This document shows positions 1-8,778 of a stretch of DNA of 8,778 bases, in pieces. The notes below the pieces were generated by a model. The model did no database searches. It saw nothing but the letters and a program-made list of their open reading frames with translations, and was not told the origin of the DNA. Position 1 is the first letter of the stretch, and each line of letters starts with the position of its first letter. Position numbers and translations under genes: made by a program. This DNA is from an uncultured Pseudomonadales bacterium (GTDB lineage: Bacteria > Pseudomonadota > Gammaproteobacteria > Pseudomonadales > IMCC2047), in assembly GCA_947258895.1 (NCBI GenBank), contig CAMYKE010000172.1, forward strand, positions 1 to 8,778, in the 5' to 3' direction.

Positions 1-273
1 TATAGCCCAGGCGTATTTTTCGTAAATTGCTTTCATCCTGTCGATCAGGTCGTTATCTTCTGTGTTTCGAGTCCATGCTTCGATTTCATGCTTTAATTGT
101 GCGACGTCTCGGGCCGTAACGCCCTGCACTTTTTGCAATTCAGCAATGCTGGAGTAAAAATCCTCCAGCGCATTGGTTTGGAATATGGATGTTTTGTTCT
201 TGTCTCCCTGAACAATGTTTCCAAATTCACTTTTACCGCCCGAAACACTGATGTTGATGTTTCCCTTCGTCAT
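1..273 (-). CDS. Partial gene: protein with N-terminal SGGK/VQG motif, then helices
   Basis: Only the first 91 codons are present and the frame is open to the left edge. The start is the ATG at 273, which overlaps the upstream stop codon as ATGA and has its own AAGGGAG ribosome binding site seven bases upstream (281-287), so translational coupling is likely. Residues 5-27 carry a Gly/Asn/Val-rich motif (NISVSGGK, three residues, GNIVQG, two residues, NK). The same motif ends the preceding protein, with 14 of 21 positions identical. Residues from about 33 to the edge look helical and charged, with no signal peptide or membrane helix, so the visible part is probably cytoplasmic. I do not recognise the family from what is visible, and the functional domain presumably lies beyond the edge. 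By inference this is the soluble partner of the membrane protein encoded just upstream. The frame and start are well supported; the function is a hypothesis. Confidence 0.85.
   Translation of the reverse strand, partial: MTKGNINISVSGGKSEFGNIVQGDKNKTSIFQTNALEDFYSSIAELQKVQGVTARDVAQLKHEIEAWTRNTEDNDLIDRMKAIYEKYAWAI
193..258 (-). other. Motif copy 2: N-terminal SGGK/VQG motif of the partner protein
   Basis: These codons specify residues 6-27 of the truncated downstream protein. Aligned to copy 1 without gaps, 14 of 21 residues are identical, including SGGK, GN, VQG and NK. The underlying DNA differs at many positions, so the likeness is held at protein level and is not a recent DNA duplication. 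Confidence 0.6.
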
Positions 274-1130
274 GCCCGTGCTCCCTTCGCAGTACTGGTT
301 ACCTTGTTCATGGCGCCCTGAACGACATTCCCCATACTGACCTTGCCGCCGGAAATGCTGATGTTCATCACCTGCATTTTTTGCGCCTTGAGTTCCGATG
401 TATCAATACCATGCGATTCGAGCTCATTAATCATCGCATTAAAAACCGCATCGTGCAGGCACCTGATTTGGGTCGCCACGTCCATATCATTGTATGCGCC
501 GGCATAGATAGTCCGCACCCGACCCAACAAATTGTGCTCTTTCTTCAGGTAGGGAATTATCCAGAACAAGATGGTAAACAAAGAATAGGCATATAAATTA
601 AACTTTTTATCCTGATCGATGTAGCCCCCCGCCAGGACACGCCATTCGATCGACTGCATCTTTCCGAAATTCGATTGACCAAGAATCAATGTTACGGTGG
701 TTCCCCGGACGGTGTTCGTCGATTCTGCCTTGATAAAGGTTCTGTCTTCCGCCTGGGACAAATCCTTGTCGACATCGGTAATTGAGATCGCTTCCATAGA
801 CTTTACCGGCGTGTTTGATGTCAATTCAGCCTCGATTGCCTGGTACATGCTCTCCTCTATTATCTCTGAATGAGAAAATACATGCTGAAAACTGCCAAAA
901 CTCTGCCCATAGTAATTGAATGGGAAGTTCTTTTTGAATCTGTTCCTGGCGGAGGACGCTTCAGTTACTTCTCTATTTACCCAGGATTTTGTTACCCATA
1001 CAGATATTGCCAGCAATATCAGCGATACACCAACGGTAAACACGGCCAGATAAAGGTGGACAAAAATAGCGATGACGACACTTCTTGGCTTTACGTTGTT
1101 CTTGACATAACCGGAATCTGATAAATCCAT
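270..1130 (-). CDS. Two-helix membrane protein with C-terminal SGGK/VQG motif
   Basis: This 286-residue protein is of unknown family. The frame is open from a GTG/ATG-capable position at 1163, but the ATG at 1130 is preferred because AAGGAG (1135-1140) sits four bases upstream of it. A short basic N-terminus (K14, R16) precedes a hydrophobic helix at about residues 17-47. A hydrophilic region of about 130 residues (48-178) follows, then a second hydrophobic helix at about 178-195 followed by KKEH and further basic residues. The positive-inside rule gives cytoplasmic ends with an extracytoplasmic central domain. The cytoplasmic tail (196-254) looks helical. It ends in the motif at 255-276 (MNISISGGK, VSM, GNVVQG), which is repeated at the N-terminus of the next protein. 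The stop overlaps the next start by four bases. The topology suggests a sensor that signals through its tail to the overlapping gene product; this is inference. The gene is visibly AT-rich compared with the right half of the window. Confidence 0.88.
   Translation of the reverse strand: MDLSDSGYVKNNVKPRSVVIAIFVHLYLAVFTVGVSLILLAISVWVTKSWVNREVTEASSARNRFKKNFPFNYYGQSFGSFQHVFSHSEIIEESMYQAIEAELTSNTPVKSMEAISITDVDKDLSQAEDRTFIKAESTNTVRGTTVTLILGQSNFGKMQSIEWRVLAGGYIDQDKKFNLYAYSLFTILFWIIPYLKKEHNLLGRVRTIYAGAYNDMDVATQIRCLHDAVFNAMINELESHGIDTSELKAQKMQVMNISISGGKVSMGNVVQGAMNKVTSTAKGARA
303..368 (-). other. Motif copy 1: C-terminal SGGK/VQG motif of the membrane protein
   Basis: These codons specify residues 255-276 of the 286-residue protein. 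The pattern is N-I-S-[IV]-S-G-G-K-x3-G-N-[VI]-V-Q-G-x2-N-K. Only ten residues follow before the stop. Alternating polar and beta-branched residues with Gly, Asn and Gln fit a short beta-arch or amyloid-type motif. It resembles, from memory, the SGG/GxVVQ motifs at the ends of some bacterial NLR-type proteins and their effectors. The resemblance is unverified. Confidence 0.6.
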
Positions 1131-3258: not shown

Positions 3259-3897
3259 CTACCAGCCGGCTGGCAGGGGTTTTTTGATGGCCAGCTTGCC
3301 GGGCAACTGCTCAATGTAGCCGCCCACCACCAGTTCCTTCATAATGCGGCTGACCATCTCCCGGGATGCGCCGACCATATTGGCGATCTCCTGGTGGGTT
3401 AGTTTGGGATTGGAAATCTGGCCGGAGTCATCCGATAGCTGCTGGAGTTGTCGCGTGACCCGGCCATAGACATCTAGTAGCGCCAGGTCCCTCGCGCTGT
3501 CCGTCAACGTGCGAATGCGCGTAACCAGCTGGCACATCAAGGCCAGGGCAACATCCGGGTTGTCGGTAATGAAACGGCGGAAATCGTCCCGCGATATGGT
3601 GACAATCACACTGTCGGCGACCGTCATCACGGACGCCGAGCGCGGCTTGCCATCTATGAGCGCGAGTTCACCAAAGTAATCCCCCGCGACGAGGTAATTA
3701 AGGACGAATTGCTTGCCGTCTTCGCCGCTCACGAACACCCGAACTCGCCCTGATTCCAGAATATACAAGTGGTTGCTGTCGTCGCCTTCCATAAACAGGA
3801 TTGAGTCTTTCGGATAATGACGACGTTTGCTGTACTCCCCCAGAGCTTCCACCAGTTCTGCAGGCACGTTGGTGAAAAGACTGACGTTCTCAAACAT
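3259..3897 (-). CDS. CRP/FNR-family cyclic-nucleotide-responsive transcription factor
   Basis: From the ATG at 3897 the protein is 212 residues, normal for the family. The frame continues to a GTG at 3948, but those 17 residues do not fit the family and the 3897 start begins right at the sensor domain; neither start has a good ribosome binding site. Residues 5-115 form the cyclic-nucleotide-binding domain. The phosphate-binding cassette reads FGELALIDGKPRSA (75-88) with E77, R86 and S87, the residues that hold the cyclic phosphate and ribose in CRP. A long dimer helix follows (about 112-140), then a winged helix-turn-helix at 166-190. The recognition helix SREMVSRIMKEL keeps R179, E180 and R184, matching the TGTGA-reading residues of CRP. 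No FNR-type cysteine cluster is present (only C122), so this is not an oxygen sensor. It is divergent from the cyclase and probably responds to its product. The target genes are not known. Confidence 0.93.
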   Translation of the reverse strand: MFENVSLFTNVPAELVEALGEYSKRRHYPKDSILFMEGDDSNHLYILESGRVRVFVSGEDGKQFVLNYLVAGDYFGELALIDGKPRSASVMTVADSVIVTISRDDFRRFITDNPDVALALMCQLVTRIRTLTDSARDLALLDVYGRVTRQLQQLSDDSGQISNPKLTHQEIANMVGASREMVSRIMKELVVGGYIEQLPGKLAIKKPLPAGW

Positions 3898-3934
3898 AGT
3901 GGCAGATAAAAATGCAGGGAAAAAACACCGGGTG

Positions 3935-3946
3935 GTATCATGATAC
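3935..3946. promoter_or_regulatory. Perfect 12 bp palindrome in the divergent promoter region
   Basis: GTATCATGATAC lies in the 95 bp between the regulator start (3897) and the cyclase start (3993), almost at the centre. Each strand contains TATCAT, one mismatch from a -10 hexamer, but I see no good -35 element at the right distance for either. It is not a CRP or FNR consensus site. It may be an operator shared by both divergent genes. Confidence 0.4.
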
Positions 3947-3992
3947 ACTCAATTGTTACCCGATCCCATAGCGTTCAGGACGCAACCGAACG

Positions 3993-6228
3993 ATGGCGAC
4001 ATCCCTCACTGATAGCAGTACGGTTGCCCCGATATCCCGCAAGCCCGCGCTGCTGGCTTTGTCGCTCGTCCTCGTTCTATGCATGTCGTTGGTGCTGTCG
4101 CCGCTTTTTCAGCGTGTTGAAGAGTCCCTCGGCCTCGGATGGTTGTTCCATTGGCGCGGCGCGATTGCAGCGCCCGGAACTGGGACGCAATCGGTGCGAT
4201 CGGGGAAATCGTCGGCGCGCTCGGCGTCATCGTCTCCTTGATCTACCTGTCCAGACAGATCGTTGGCCGCGCAACGTGCATGCCGAACTGATCGCCGAGC
4301 TTGACCGCCGCGGCGCCGCTGTGATTGCCCTGGATATTGCATTCAAGGAGCCACGGTCTCGCGACGAGGACCAGCCGCTGGCGAGTGCAATCCAGGCGGC
4401 TGGCAATGTCGTCCTGTTCAAATACCTGCAGCGCTCGCAGCACGGACTGACCAGCAAGGAAGGAGATCGACTGGGCATCATGGACCTGGAAACCGAGGTC
4501 CCGCCAATCCGTCCGCTCAGGAACGCCGCTGCTGCGGTCGGCACATTCACCCTGCCGAAAACGCCGTTGCGCGTAAACAAAACGAAGCTCTATACGCAAT
4601 TGACGGAGGGCGTTGAAGCGAACCTGGTACTGGCGGTTCTGCAAGTGTATTCGAAGGCGCTCCTGCCCCACATGGGCGCGCTGTTTGCCAAAGCTGCGCC
4701 GGGGGTTGTGCCAGCGGACCTGTTTGGTATCGAGTCCGACCCCCAATTACGGGCACGTGCAATTCACGCAGGATTTACCACGCATCCGGCCTTGCCCGGG
4801 CGGCTGATCACGCTTGCGTCGCAACATACCGATCCGAGCCAGCGGCAACAGCTCATAGCGATGCTGCAGGCATACGAGCAAAGGGCTGACGTGTACATTA
4901 ACTTTTACGGCCCCGAACGGACTGTGGCTACCATTGGCTACGATCAGGTATTGGGCGCGCCCGGCGCTCGCGAGTTGGTGGCCGATGTGCAGGGTAAAAT
5001 TGTCTTCGTAGGGCTCTCTGAATGGTTGCAGACCGAGCAAAGTGATAGCTATACGACGGTCTTTACCCGCGACGATGGGGTCGACCTGAGCGGCGTTGAG
5101 ATTGCCGCGACAGTTACCGCGAATTTACTCGAAGGCAGGCCGGTCAAACCGTTTCCCGGTCAGCCTGTTTTGCTGCTCGCGATGACGATTTTACTATTTC
5201 TGGTGGCCCTTTCCGGCTCCCTCAAACAGGTACTGGTCATCCAAATGTTGATCGCTGCCGCTTACGCCTTGCTTGCTCACCACCTGTTTGCCCGCTATGC
5301 ACTATGGCTGCCCCTGGCGACTCCCCTCGCGGTACTGCTGTTCACCAGTCTCGCAGCGCTCGGAGCACGCTATGTTCAATCCAGTATTGCCGGACAAGCC
5401 ATTACCGATGCGCTAAGCCACTACCTGCCCCGTGAGGCCGCACAGCAACTGAGCCAGGATATTCGCCAATTCCAGGAACAATACAGTGATGTGAAAGGGG
5501 TATGCCTGATGACCGACATCCAGGGTTATACCGCGATATCCGAGCAACTGAGTCCGAGTGACCTGCACCGCCTCATGAACAATTATTACGCAAAGCTGGT
5601 CGAGCAGGTAAAAATCCATGACGGCACGGTAGCGAACATCGTCGGCGATAGCCTGTTGGCGATCTGGACGGCCAAAGAACTGGATAGAGAATTATGCAGC
5701 CGGGTTTGTAATGCCGCTTTGAGTATCGCACAGGTGGCCAATGAAGCCGCGAGCACCGCTATTCCCCTGCCTACTTCCGTTGCGGTGCATGGTGGCAGCT
5801 TTTCACTGGGCAACCTGGGCGGTGGGGACCATTTCGAATACTCCCCGGTAGGGGATATAGTCAATACCAGCTCACGTATCGAGGGGCAGAACCGGACTTT
5901 ACGCACTCGTATATTAACCACCGATATCATTGCGCAGGGCGCATCCGGCTTTGTCCTGCGCAATCTCGGGGATTTTCCGCTAAAGAACAAGCAAGCACCG
6001 TTGTGCCTGCATGAACTGCTAGGCCATGATGCCGACATTTCCCCGGAGACACGGCTGTTAGTGAAGTGTTTTCGTGAAGCACTGGGTTATTATCAGCAAC
6101 GCGACTATGTCGCCGCGCTGAACTTGTTTGATCAGCTGGTTGCGCAACACCCCGATGATGGGCCGAGCCTCTATTACCGGGCCCGGTGTGAACAATTTCT
6201 GTCAGTCACACAATCGCCGCGGGAATAA
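3993..6228 (+). CDS. CHASE2-domain class III nucleotide cyclase, reading frame broken
   Basis: The architecture is N-terminal helix, CHASE2 sensor, three membrane helices (about 5155-5376), class III cyclase domain (about 5482-5940) and a TPR-like tail (6040-6228). It would make a cyclic nucleotide in the cytoplasm in response to an extracytoplasmic signal. The cyclase domain keeps both metal aspartates (codons 5515-5517 in MTDIQGYT and 5647-5649 in NIVGDSLLAIW) and the transition-state Asn and Arg (5863-5865, 5875-5877 in VGDIVNTSSR). The usual purine-reading Lys is Asn (5635-5637), and the usual Thr/Asp position is Ser (5842-5844). The frame is not continuous. From 3993 the sequence reads a good membrane helix and ESLGLGWLFHWRGAIAAP, then stops at 4239-4241. 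The CHASE2 core (DRWPRNVHAELI onward, 4258) and all the rest are in the next frame. That frame is open back to an ATG at 3940, but it reads Arg/Cys-rich nonsense there. Either this is a pseudogene or sequence error, or only a shortened form is made. Confidence 0.85.
4176..4261 (+). other. Anomalous segment in the CHASE2 coding region with a third-frame peptide
   Basis: The last good residue before the break ends at 4175 and the first secure CHASE2 residue after it starts at 4258, leaving 82 bp (27 codons plus one base). Neither flanking frame gives the expected first CHASE2 strand (VVIVAID type). The third frame instead reads NWDAIGAIGEIVGAL then GVIVSLIYLSRQI (4178-4261). From memory this looks like the N-terminus of a widespread hypothetical membrane-protein family (usually starting MNWEAIGAIGE and ending in YLAxQIR). 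It may be a transplanted fragment, a recombination scar, an assembly chimera, or a doubly frameshifted native CHASE2 strand. Confidence 0.5.
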
Positions 6229-6288: not shown

Positions 6289-6336
6289 GCCAATGATGGC
6301 ATGTGGGACACATCCAATCAGCAACCAAGGGATGTC

Positions 6337-8778
6337 ATGACTGATAATTGGGGCAGAGGGACAGGTGGCTTCGGGCAGTGGTTTATTTGCTTGGTTGCGC
6401 TGCTATTGTATTGGTCTTTTCCTGTCGCTTATGCGCAGATGACGGGCAACTGTGAGCCCTGGTTAGCCAAACTGGTGAGCCTGGAAGGGCGTGCGGAGGT
6501 GTTGACGCATGGCCAGTCCCAGTGGAAAGCCGCACAGCCGGGGCAGCATTTTTGCGCCGGCGACACCCTGCGGGTCTTGCAAAACCCGGCGGCACTTCGT
6601 CTTTCCAATCAAACAGTACTGCGAGTCAAAGAACGTTCAACATTAAAGTTCGTTGAACCCAGGCAGGGATTCTGGCTGGAGTTGCTGGAAGGCTTCGTCC
6701 ATTTTATTACCCGCACCCCCAAACGTTTTGAAATTACCACGCCTTATCACAATGCTGTGGTGGAAGGCACCGAGTTTTTTGTGGCCGCAGGCGACGGACA
6801 AGGTGAGGTGGGCGTGTTTGAGGGTCAGGTCCTGGTAGCCAATGATCAGGGACAATTGAGCCTGACGGGTAATCAGCGAGCGATCGCCAGGGCAGGGACC
6901 CCGCCCCGCAAAGTCACGGCCATCAACCTGCGGGATGCCGTCGCTTGGGCGCTCTACTATCCACCCGTCCTCACGCCGAGCGATACCCCGGAAGACATAA
7001 GCAGGGAGTTGACTCATGGCCAGGCTTCACGTGCCCTGGAACGTCTTGCGGCTATGTCGGAGGCTGAAAAAAATTCCGACTTGCACGCCCTGGAAGCCGG
7101 ATTGTCATTATATCTGGGCCAGGTCGAACGCGCTTCTATCCTCCTGGCCAAGACGTTTGCAGCCGATCCCGAAAACGTCACCGCGCTGAGCCTGCAGAGC
7201 ATAACGACACTGGCAAGCGGAGATCCGCAAAAGGCCCTGCAGCAGGCACTGGCGAACACCGATCGTTGGCCGGGCGAAGCGACTGCCTGGCTAGCCTTAT
7301 CCTATGCCCAGCAGGGGGTGTTCGATCTTCCGAAGGCGCTGCAGAGTGCGCGCCAGGCCCTCGCGCTGCGTCCCAATGCAGGGCTGTTGCATGCGCGGCT
7401 GGCCGAACTGGCGCTGGCAAACGGAGAATCCCGGAAAGCATTGTTGCATGCCCAACAAGCGCAGGCCCTCGCGCCGGGGTACAGCCGCACTTACAGCGTG
7501 CTGGGGTTCGCCGCCATGAATCGCTTTGCGCTGGCCGATGCGGAGGCAGCCTTTCAGCAAGCGGCGACCCTGGATCCCTCGGACCCCATGCCGCGTCTGG
7601 GCCTGGGCCTGGCCGCGATCCGTCGCGGCGACCTGGCGCAGGGCCGGGAACTGATCGAGCTGGCAGCAATCCTGGATCCGGGAAACAGCCTGATCCGTAG
7701 TTACCTTGGTAAAGCCTACTACGAGCAGAAAAAAGTGAGCCTCGCGGCTACCGAGTTGGCAATTGCGAAACAGCTGGATCCAAATGATCCGACACCCTGG
7801 TTCTATGGCGCCATTCAAGAGCAAATGCGTAATCGCCCGGTGGAAGCCCTTGCCGCTCTGGAAAAGTCAATCGCATTAAATGATAACCGCGCAGTATATC
7901 GCTCACGCCTGCTACTCGACGCGGACAGGGCGACCCGTGGCACGAGCCTCGCGCGAATCCACGATGATCTGGGGTTCGAGCAGCTGGCCCTCGTCACGGC
8001 CGCCAAATCCTTGAGTTATGACCCAGGCAACCACTCGGCGCACCGTTTTCTTTCGGATGCCTACGCGGGGCGGTCACGCCATGAAATCGCCCGGGTCAGT
8101 GAATTGCTCCAGGCGCAGCTCCTGCAGCCCCTCAATGTCAATCCAATCCAGCCGAGGCTTACCGTTACTGATCTCAATATTGTCGCCGGCGCCGGCCCCG
8201 CCGAAGCGGCTTTTAATGAATATACTCCATTATTTGAACGTAACAGGCCACAACTCGTGGTCTCCGCTCTGGGCGGCGACAACGACACATGGGGCGAGGA
8301 AGTTGTCGTATCCGGGCTGGCTGATCGGCTTTCATACAGCCTGGGCCAGTTTCATTATGAAACCGATGGCTTTCGCCAGAATAATGACCTGGAACACGAC
8401 ATTTATAATGTGTTCGCGCAGTACGCGCTGACGCAGGACGTGAGTGTTCAGGTCGAATTGCGCAGTCGCGAAACGCAGCAGGGCGATCTAACGCAGGAAT
8501 TCGATCCGGCGATTTTCTCGGAGAGCAATCGACGCAAATTACGACATGACAGTGTGCGCCTGGGTGGGCGCGTCTCCTTGTCACCTTCACAGGATTTGAT
8601 TGGATCCTGGATCTACAGCGATCGGCGCGAAACGCTAACCAATTTCGAACCGCAATTCATCGAGGTCTTCGACCTTGCGGATGAGGGGTATCAGGTCGAG
8701 GCTCAGTATCTTTACAGAGCACCGCAGGCTAACGTCACTGCAGGGGTGGGCAGTTATGAGATAGAGACGACGACGCAG
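6337..8778 (+). CDS. Partial gene: exported FecR-domain, TPR, outer-membrane beta-barrel protein
   Basis: The frame is open for 814 codons to the right edge. The ATG at 6337 has AAGGG (6327-6331) five bases upstream. Residues 1-33 are a signal peptide with a hydrophobic core (about 15-29) and a VAYA cleavage site before Q34. Residues about 41-190 are a FecR-type domain, including LRLSNQTVLRVKERSTL and ITTPYHNAVVEGTEFFV (133-149). Residues about 225-600 are a TPR array with six helix-turn landmarks about 34 residues apart (345, 378, 412, 446, 480, 514); three are LDP encoded by identical CTGGATCC, exactly 102 bp apart. From about 609 the protein changes to alternating beta-strand sequence with aromatic residues and many Asp/Asn turns, ending in strands such as YQVEAQYLYRAP, like a TonB-receptor-type barrel. 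It is probably an outer-membrane protein with periplasmic FecR and TPR parts, for export or assembly of a surface product. It lies 108 bp downstream of the cyclase, possibly in the same transcription unit. Confidence 0.9.
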   Translation, partial: MTDNWGRGTGGFGQWFICLVALLLYWSFPVAYAQMTGNCEPWLAKLVSLEGRAEVLTHGQSQWKAAQPGQHFCAGDTLRVLQNPAALRLSNQTVLRVKERSTLKFVEPRQGFWLELLEGFVHFITRTPKRFEITTPYHNAVVEGTEFFVAAGDGQGEVGVFEGQVLVANDQGQLSLTGNQRAIARAGTPPRKVTAINLRDAVAWALYYPPVLTPSDTPEDISRELTHGQASRALERLAAMSEAEKNSDLHALEAGLSLYLGQVERASILLAKTFAADPENVTALSLQSITTLASGDPQKALQQALANTDRWPGEATAWLALSYAQQGVFDLPKALQSARQALALRPNAGLLHARLAELALANGESRKALLHAQQAQALAPGYSRTYSVLGFAAMNRFALADAEAAFQQAATLDPSDPMPRLGLGLAAIRRGDLAQGRELIELAAILDPGNSLIRSYLGKAYYEQKKVSLAATELAIAKQLDPNDPTPWFYGAIQEQMRNRPVEALAALEKSIALNDNRAVYRSRLLLDADRATRGTSLARIHDDLGFEQLALVTAAKSLSYDPGNHSAHRFLSDAYAGRSRHEIARVSELLQAQLLQPLNVNPIQPRLTVTDLNIVAGAGPAEAAFNEYTPLFERNRPQLVVSALGGDNDTWGEEVVVSGLADRLSYSLGQFHYETDGFRQNNDLEHDIYNVFAQYALTQDVSVQVELRSRETQQGDLTQEFDPAIFSESNRRKLRHDSVRLGGRVSLSPSQDLIGSWIYSDRRETLTNFEPQFIEVFDLADEGYQVEAQYLYRAPQANVTAGVGSYEIETTTQ

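What the first reader, a model, noticed from the sequence alone, without database searches (positions are those of the whole stretch)
193..368. Possible amyloid-signalling pair: the same short motif at facing ends of two overlapping genes
The C-terminus of the 286-residue membrane protein and the N-terminus of the overlapping downstream protein share NIS-[IV]-SGGK-x3-GN-[VI]-VQG-x2-NK, 14 of 21 identical. The likeness is in protein rather than DNA, which argues for selection. Adjacent genes with one short Gly/Asn/Gln/Val motif C-terminal in one protein and N-terminal in the next is the known layout of bacterial amyloid-signalling motifs (BASS) and of the fungal HET-s/NLR pairs. The VQG-x2-N run also recalls the RHIM core. 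Here one partner is a predicted transmembrane protein with an extracytoplasmic domain, which would make it a membrane sensor templating a cytoplasmic partner rather than the usual NLR-effector pair.
Basis: partly seen in the sequence, partly recalled or inferred. Interest (0 to 1): 0.75.

Follow-up and report, generated by a model that had tools for sequence, protein, structure and literature searches.

The report
Membrane protein and partner sharing motif
Two neighbouring marine-bacterial genes make a membrane protein and a small soluble protein that end and begin with the same short conserved stretch, which looks like a lock-together motif of the kind used in amyloid signalling but without the usual immune-receptor partner.

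Summary
A 286-residue membrane protein (A) ends, and a roughly 103-residue soluble helical protein (B, cut by the contig end) begins, with the same 21-residue motif, 14 of 21 identical. It is no local accident. A profile of B heads alone recognises the tails of 112 of 120 A proteins and 0 of 2400 shuffles. A-only and B-only profiles align only over the motif (P 1.1e-9), which is the most conserved 21-residue window of both families. Of 19 A-bearing genomes, 15 have the intact pair with an ATGA overlap and the motif on both sides; in the other four, one or both genes are damaged. Elsewhere in those 19 genomes the motif profile scores no better than E 0.021. AlphaFold2 leaves B's motif and half of A's unfolded. 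Charges suggest a cytoplasmic, not extracytoplasmic, A domain. RHIM/PP spacing is absent, and B is no NLR. Best reading: an undescribed, NLR-free two-gene unit whose shared motif joins the proteins, most likely by beta-arch co-stacking as in amyloid signalling. The coupling is well supported; the amyloid step is inferred.

The parts
270..1130 (-). Gene A: 286-residue protein with an N-terminal transmembrane hairpin, an alpha/beta domain and the C-terminal motif (a TTG start would extend it to 1163)
   Evidence: ORF; 119 further homologues listed, 104 of the 120 listed proteins being 280-300 residues long; AF2 mean pLDDT 87.9; no Pfam or NCBIfam family at E up to 1
1..273 (-). Gene B: small soluble helical protein with the motif at its N-terminus; cut by the contig end (91 of about 103 residues)
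   Evidence: ORF; 19 homologues; AF2 of homologue P0122 gives four helices
303..365 (-). Motif copy 1: C-terminal tail of A, residues 256-276
193..255 (-). Motif copy 2: N-terminal head of B, residues 7-27
270..273 (-). ATGA overlap of A stop and B start (likely translational coupling, inferred)
   Evidence: Same 4-nt overlap in 16 of 16 intact pairs
954..1088 (-). Predicted transmembrane helix hairpin of A, residues 15-59
   Evidence: AF2 helices 15-31 and 35-59; hydropathy and flanking charge
414..905 (-). Folded alpha/beta domain of A, residues 76-239, predicted cytoplasmic
   Evidence: AF2 pLDDT mostly above 90; only weak fold matches
369..413 (-). Conserved linker of A, residues 240-254, ahead of the motif
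   Evidence: Mean entropy 0.88 for residues 241-255 against 1.59 for residues 61-240; AF2 helix 245-254
1..186 (-). Helical region of B from residue 30 on (incomplete in the window)
   Evidence: AF2 of homologue P0122: helices 30-48, 54-69, 76-86, 88-101

Best explanation
A and B form a self-contained, probably translationally coupled two-gene unit. A is anchored in the inner membrane by a helix hairpin, with its alpha/beta domain and C-terminal tail in the cytoplasm; B is a soluble four-helix protein with an unstructured head. Shown: the A tail and B head carry one homologous, highly conserved motif that in the genomes scanned is found only in this pair. Inferred: when freed or clustered, A tails and B heads stack as beta-arches on one another (motif-on-motif co-assembly, as in amyloid-signalling pairs), so that a change of state in one partner is copied to the other and B's helical domain is gathered at the membrane, or B seeds clustering of A. 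Which partner senses and which acts is not settled. The layout of known systems (C-terminal motif on the membrane-side effector, N-terminal motif on the trigger) makes A the membrane-side actor and B the trigger slightly more likely.
For: Shared motif far above chance (0 of 1000 shuffles) with diverged third codon positions. A-only versus B-only profile alignment: P 1.1e-9 over 26 columns, motif only. B-head profile hits the last 50 residues of 112 of 120 A proteins, 0 of 2400 shuffles; A-tail profile hits 29 of 29 B at E 0.05 or better, 19 of them at 1e-3. In four whole genomes the B profile's second-best place is A's tail (E 1.1e-5, 1.1e-5, 1.6e-4, 0.017). The motif is the most conserved 21-residue window in both families, although AF2 leaves residues 1-27 of B (all of its motif) and 267-286 of A (10 of its 21 motif residues) below pLDDT 50. 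Adjacency and ATGA overlap in 16 of 16 intact pairs. In 19 genomes the motif profile's 35 best places (E 1.7e-6 or better) are all pair sites; the next has E 0.021. In three genomes both genes are damaged or their motifs degenerate. Fifteen A-less genomes of one family gave no B at E 0.1 (no positive genome in that run). 3 prolines in 2780 A-tail residues.
Against: No amyloid or aggregation test was possible. B is not an NLR and A is not a recognised effector. The named genomes with the pair are marine Gammaproteobacteria, not the filamentous bacteria in which such pairs are known. AF2 gives two short strands in the A tail (257-260, 263-266), compatible with a plain beta hairpin. A and B motifs differ in a fixed way (mostly QGA in A, QGD in B), and in HTCC2207 (L004) only 6 of 21 residues match. 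Own-pair motifs are barely more alike than swapped ones (mean score 55.1 against 53.9; 180 of 10000 permutations, relatedness not removed). Five of 120 A proteins are full length but have a degenerate tail, and in G821 A and its motif are intact beside a frame-shifted B, so A's motif is not always lost with B.
Confidence: 0.45

Rival explanations
1. Ordinary non-amyloid docking: A tail and B head pair as a beta-hairpin or beta-augmentation contact (1:1 or a small ring) that holds a stable membrane complex together; no templating or polymerisation.
For: Same linkage and conservation data; AF2 shows two short strands in the A tail; the constant 4-nt overlap would suit a fixed stoichiometry (inference).
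Against: A docking contact seldom needs the same sequence on both partners; self-similar motifs on both sides are typical of stacking assemblies (general knowledge).
Confidence: 0.3
2. Mimicry: the A tail and the B head are alternative ligands of one site, on A's own domain or on a third protein, so that B displaces the A tail (release of self-inhibition) or competes with it.
For: One linear motif on two proteins, unfolded in B and half unfolded in A, strongly conserved together with the linker before it in A.
Against: No conserved third gene beside the pair outside one family's ordinary synteny (flanks of about 2.6 kb where held); AF2 gives the end of the A tail no confident position.
Confidence: 0.15
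3. The likeness is a relic of an old partial duplication (or chance) without joint function.
For: Adjacent genes; 42 of 63 DNA identity in the window.
Against: Third codon positions diverged (9 of 21) while the motif stays the most conserved window of both proteins and is kept on both sides in 15 further genomes.
Confidence: 0.03

Closest known systems
Bacterial amyloid signalling sequences (BASS1-10) in BELL-NLR gene pairs
   Same: One short motif (20-40 residues in PMC8086366, 21 here) at the C-terminus of a membrane-side protein and the N-terminus of the protein of an adjacent or overlapping gene
   Different: No NLR (B is about 103 residues, helical) and no recognised BELL domain (A has a transmembrane hairpin plus an alpha/beta domain); named hosts are marine Gammaproteobacteria instead of mainly actinobacteria and cyanobacteria; BASS profiles could not be run
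RHIM / fungal PP / BASS3 motif
   Same: Short N/G/Q/V motif
   Different: The PP core NxGxQxGxN and the RHIM-like Q-x-G-x-x-N spacing are absent (0 of 120 A, 0 of 19 B); here Q and G are adjacent
Fungal HET-s and sigma motif pairs (HeLo effector with NLR)
   Same: Motif C-terminal on one partner and N-terminal on the other, neighbouring genes
   Different: No Pfam match for any of 25 motif sequences, 24 of them distinct; bacterial; no NLR
Effector-associated domains / bacterial Death-like and TRADD-N adaptors (PMC8195603, abstract and passages)
   Same: Small helical adaptors that join partners through a shared element
   Different: There the shared element is a folded domain; here it is a 21-residue motif, and the helical part is in B only

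Membership tests
BASS-type amyloid signalling pair | Same short motif at the C-terminus of one protein and the N-terminus of its neighbour's, in adjacent or overlapping genes | tested here: met
   16 intact pairs: window and 15 of the 19 genomes found with A; the other 4 are damaged; profile tests
BASS-type amyloid signalling pair | Receptor partner is an NLR (NB-ARC or NACHT plus repeats) | tested here: not met
   The longest of the 19 listed B homologues has 116 residues, too short for an NLR; for P0122 Pfam gives only matches below cut-off, among them a NACHT N-terminal helical model at E 0.024
BASS-type amyloid signalling pair | Effector partner carries BELL, TIR, CHAT or another known effector domain | tested here: inconclusive
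BASS-type amyloid signalling pair | Motif matches one of the BASS1-10 profile HMMs | not testable with these tools
   The profiles were not available; the original paper is not held
BASS-type amyloid signalling pair | Motif forms amyloid and seeds its partner | not testable with these tools
   Needs the bench
BASS-type amyloid signalling pair | Multicellular or filamentous host | tested here: inconclusive
RHIM / PP / BASS3 | Core NxGxQxGxN (PP, pattern from PMC9815663) or (I/V)Q(hydrophobic)GxxN (RHIM, recalled) | tested here: not met
   0 of 120 A and 0 of 19 B
Fungal HET-s / sigma / PP Pfam models | Match to the Pfam model | tested here: inconclusive
   0 families for 25 of 25 motif sequences at E up to 10, but HMMER's filters drop most weak matches and I did not check that each model is in this copy
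EAD / Death-like / TRADD-N adaptors | Homologous folded adaptor domain on both partners | tested here: inconclusive
   A and B align over the motif only; over 29 B proteins no Pfam family matched more than 4 (25 of 85 families shown)

The most novel reading that the evidence does not exclude
A new motif family of amyloid signalling that works without any NLR: a membrane-anchored alpha/beta protein and a soluble four-helix partner in marine Gammaproteobacteria switch state by heterotypic cross-beta templating through a 21-residue motif found, in the genomes scanned, only in this pair.
Probability: 0.35. Interest if true: 0.8.

Novelty: new variant of a known kind. Interest (0 to 1): 0.62.

Why it matters
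A 2021 review of the field lists as an open question whether bacteria have signalling amyloids in proteins and pathways not dependent on NLRs, and notes that the searches so far were biased to NLR/executor architectures (PMC7889193, passages). This pair is a concrete candidate: two small proteins, one motif, no NLR, marine Gammaproteobacteria, and two peptides that can be tested for fibres and cross-seeding. Even if the contact proves non-amyloid, the unit is a conserved pair of protein families for which no Pfam or NCBIfam model was found here.

Full report
WHAT IS THERE. On the minus strand of the window, gene A (270-1130, 286 residues) is followed by gene B (1-273, cut by the contig end at 91 residues). 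The two overlap by the four bases ATGA. A residues 256-276 (window 303-365) and B residues 7-27 (193-255) share 14 of 21 residues, while the DNA shares 42 of 63 bases and only 9 of 21 third codon positions. Shuffling both proteins never reaches the observed score (0 of 1000).

THE FAMILIES. The A search gave 121 hits including the window's own protein; 120 are listed, at 37-71% identity apart from the window's own, 104 of them 280-300 residues long. B has 19, of which 17 have 103-116 residues and two have 66 and 72. The window's A has no Pfam, NCBIfam or PADLOC family at E up to 1 and no PHROGs family at 0.1. Over 46 A and 29 B proteins, Pfam gives only scattered matches (best E 9e-4 and 7e-4; no family in more than 3 and 4 members of those shown). 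A is patchy: 2 of 369 genomes of the class, 2 of 395 of one family, 15 of 112 of the family of HTCC2207, 1 of 349 of the phylum, 4 of 376 of the order, 1 of 5 and 1 of 7 in two small families. In several of these counts the hit is the genome the search was centred on or one already found. The window's A has no match in plasmid or phage records, and no relative of A or B was confirmed in viral contigs.

THE MOTIF BINDS THE TWO FAMILIES. An alignment of A (96 rows) and one of B (29 rows), compared as profiles, align over 26 columns only, exactly the motif, with P 1.1e-9. A model of B heads alone finds the last 50 residues of 112 of 120 A proteins at E 1e-3 or better (database size set to 5000), and none of 2400 shuffled sequences. 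The eight misses are five full-length proteins with a degenerate tail (P0079, P0085, P0087, P0096, P0099), two with an altered or missing C-terminus (P0104, P0116) and one divergent tail (P0105, E 0.017). The reverse model finds 29 of 29 B proteins at 0.05 and 19 of 29 at 1e-3. Within four whole genomes, a B profile's best place is B and its second-best is A's tail (E 1.1e-5, 1.1e-5, 1.6e-4, 0.017). Within 19 whole genomes that hold A, the 35 best places of a motif profile are all pair sites; the next has E 0.021 (the profile includes sequences from some of these genomes; G815 gave one pair site and G799 none). Of 349 genomes of the phylum, only G002, a genome already in the set, has the motif at 0.01.

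CONSERVATION WITHOUT A FIRM FOLD. In A, the 21-residue window starting at residue 255 has the lowest entropy of 266 windows (0.67; residues 61-240 average 1.59). In B, the windows at residues 4-8 are the lowest of 83 (1.08-1.15; residues 28-103 average 2.01). Yet AlphaFold2 leaves B residues 1-27 below pLDDT 50 (homologue P0122, mean 67.5). In A (mean 87.9) residues 267-286 are below 50, that is 10 of the 21 motif residues; the other half is modelled as two short strands, 257-260 and 263-266, at falling confidence. Strong conservation of a segment with little fold of its own is what a linear assembly or docking motif shows.

THE PAIR IN GENOMES. Nineteen genomes with A were found. Fifteen have the intact pair, as does the window: 16 of 16 with ATGA overlap and B's motif at the same place. 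Four are not intact. In G821 B is shifted by a frame change within the motif, while A and its motif are intact. In G815 B's motif is gone and B has an early stop, and A's motif is weakened. In G807 A is broken and B has a stop. In G799 A is broken and both motifs are degenerate or gone, though B's helical frame is open. Fifteen genomes of the HTCC2207 family without A gave no B at E 0.1 (that run had no positive genome, its six-row parent profile found B in 4 of 4 genomes). Nine of 19 B records have the same longest-contig length as an A record, which is indirect evidence of linkage. Of 28 neighbour clusters shared by two or more of 18 loci, none includes a locus outside the HTCC2207 family, so no third component is seen.

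ANATOMY AND MECHANISM. A starts with a helix hairpin (15-31, 35-59) whose downstream flank is net positive in all 16 pairs (+1 to +4) and whose first 14 residues are net 0 to +2. By the positive-inside rule (recalled) the folded domain and tail are cytoplasmic, on the same side as B. B has no segment hydrophobic enough to span a membrane in the four sequences examined (highest 19-residue mean 0.73). The A tail is rich in Gly, Asn, Val, Met and Ile, with 3 prolines in 2780 residues. The motif pattern is roughly hydrophobic-x-hydrophobic-S-G-G-x3-hydrophobic-G-N-hydrophobic-x-Q-G-x2-N. The reading I favour is motif-on-motif assembly through short beta-arches, joining B to the membrane protein. 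Membrane anchoring and motif coupling are supported by the calls above. Beta-arch stacking, templating, direction and output are inferred.

AGAINST. The two motifs differ in a fixed way (mostly QGA in A, QGD in B), and in HTCC2207 only 6 of 21 residues match. Own-pair likeness is only slightly above swapped pairs (55.1 against 53.9; 180 of 10000 permutations, relatedness not removed). Simple docking explains most of the same data. Five A homologues are full length with a degenerate tail, and G821 has an intact A beside a shifted B, so the two motifs are not lost together in every case.

COMPARISON WITH WHAT IS KNOWN. [quoted passage not shown] PMC8086366 and PMC12261475, passages). The shared N-/C-terminal motif of adjacent genes is itself used as an identification criterion (PMC9815663, passages). 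By that layout the pair qualifies; by the NLR criterion it does not. The BASS profiles and the original paper were not available. The RHIM/PP/BASS3 core is excluded by spacing. The searches of papers run here listed no paper on this pair by title or abstract start; they covered the open library only, and none was a search by sequence.

VERDICT. Confirmed observation; a real, apparently undescribed, NLR-free motif pair. It works like an amyloid-signalling pair in layout, but membership is unproven.

Noticed in passing
P0006, P0014, P0023, P0026: Four of 120 A proteins (442-453 residues) carry an extra N-terminal membrane segment of about 155 residues, possibly a fused upstream partner.
   Followed up: no
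window 3259-3948 (-), 3940-6228 (+), 6301-8778 (+): A CRP-type regulator, a CHASE2 protein with an adenylate/guanylate cyclase domain and weak TPR matches, and a FecR-TPR protein lie together; the ORFs of the first two are divergent and overlap by about 9 bases if the first starts are used.
   Followed up: no
L028 and L030: Related genomes in which both genes of the pair are degenerate: the B motif is lost in both, the A motif is weakened in L028 and lost in L030, while much of B's helical frame stays open.
   Followed up: partly
P0079, P0085, P0087, P0096, P0099: Full-length A homologues with a degenerate tail; their B partners could not be read and would be a natural test of co-evolution.
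   Followed up: no
L014 604-990 (+): A 128-residue ORF with hydrophobic segments (by eye) lies convergent to the pair just beyond B in a divergent genome.
   Followed up: no
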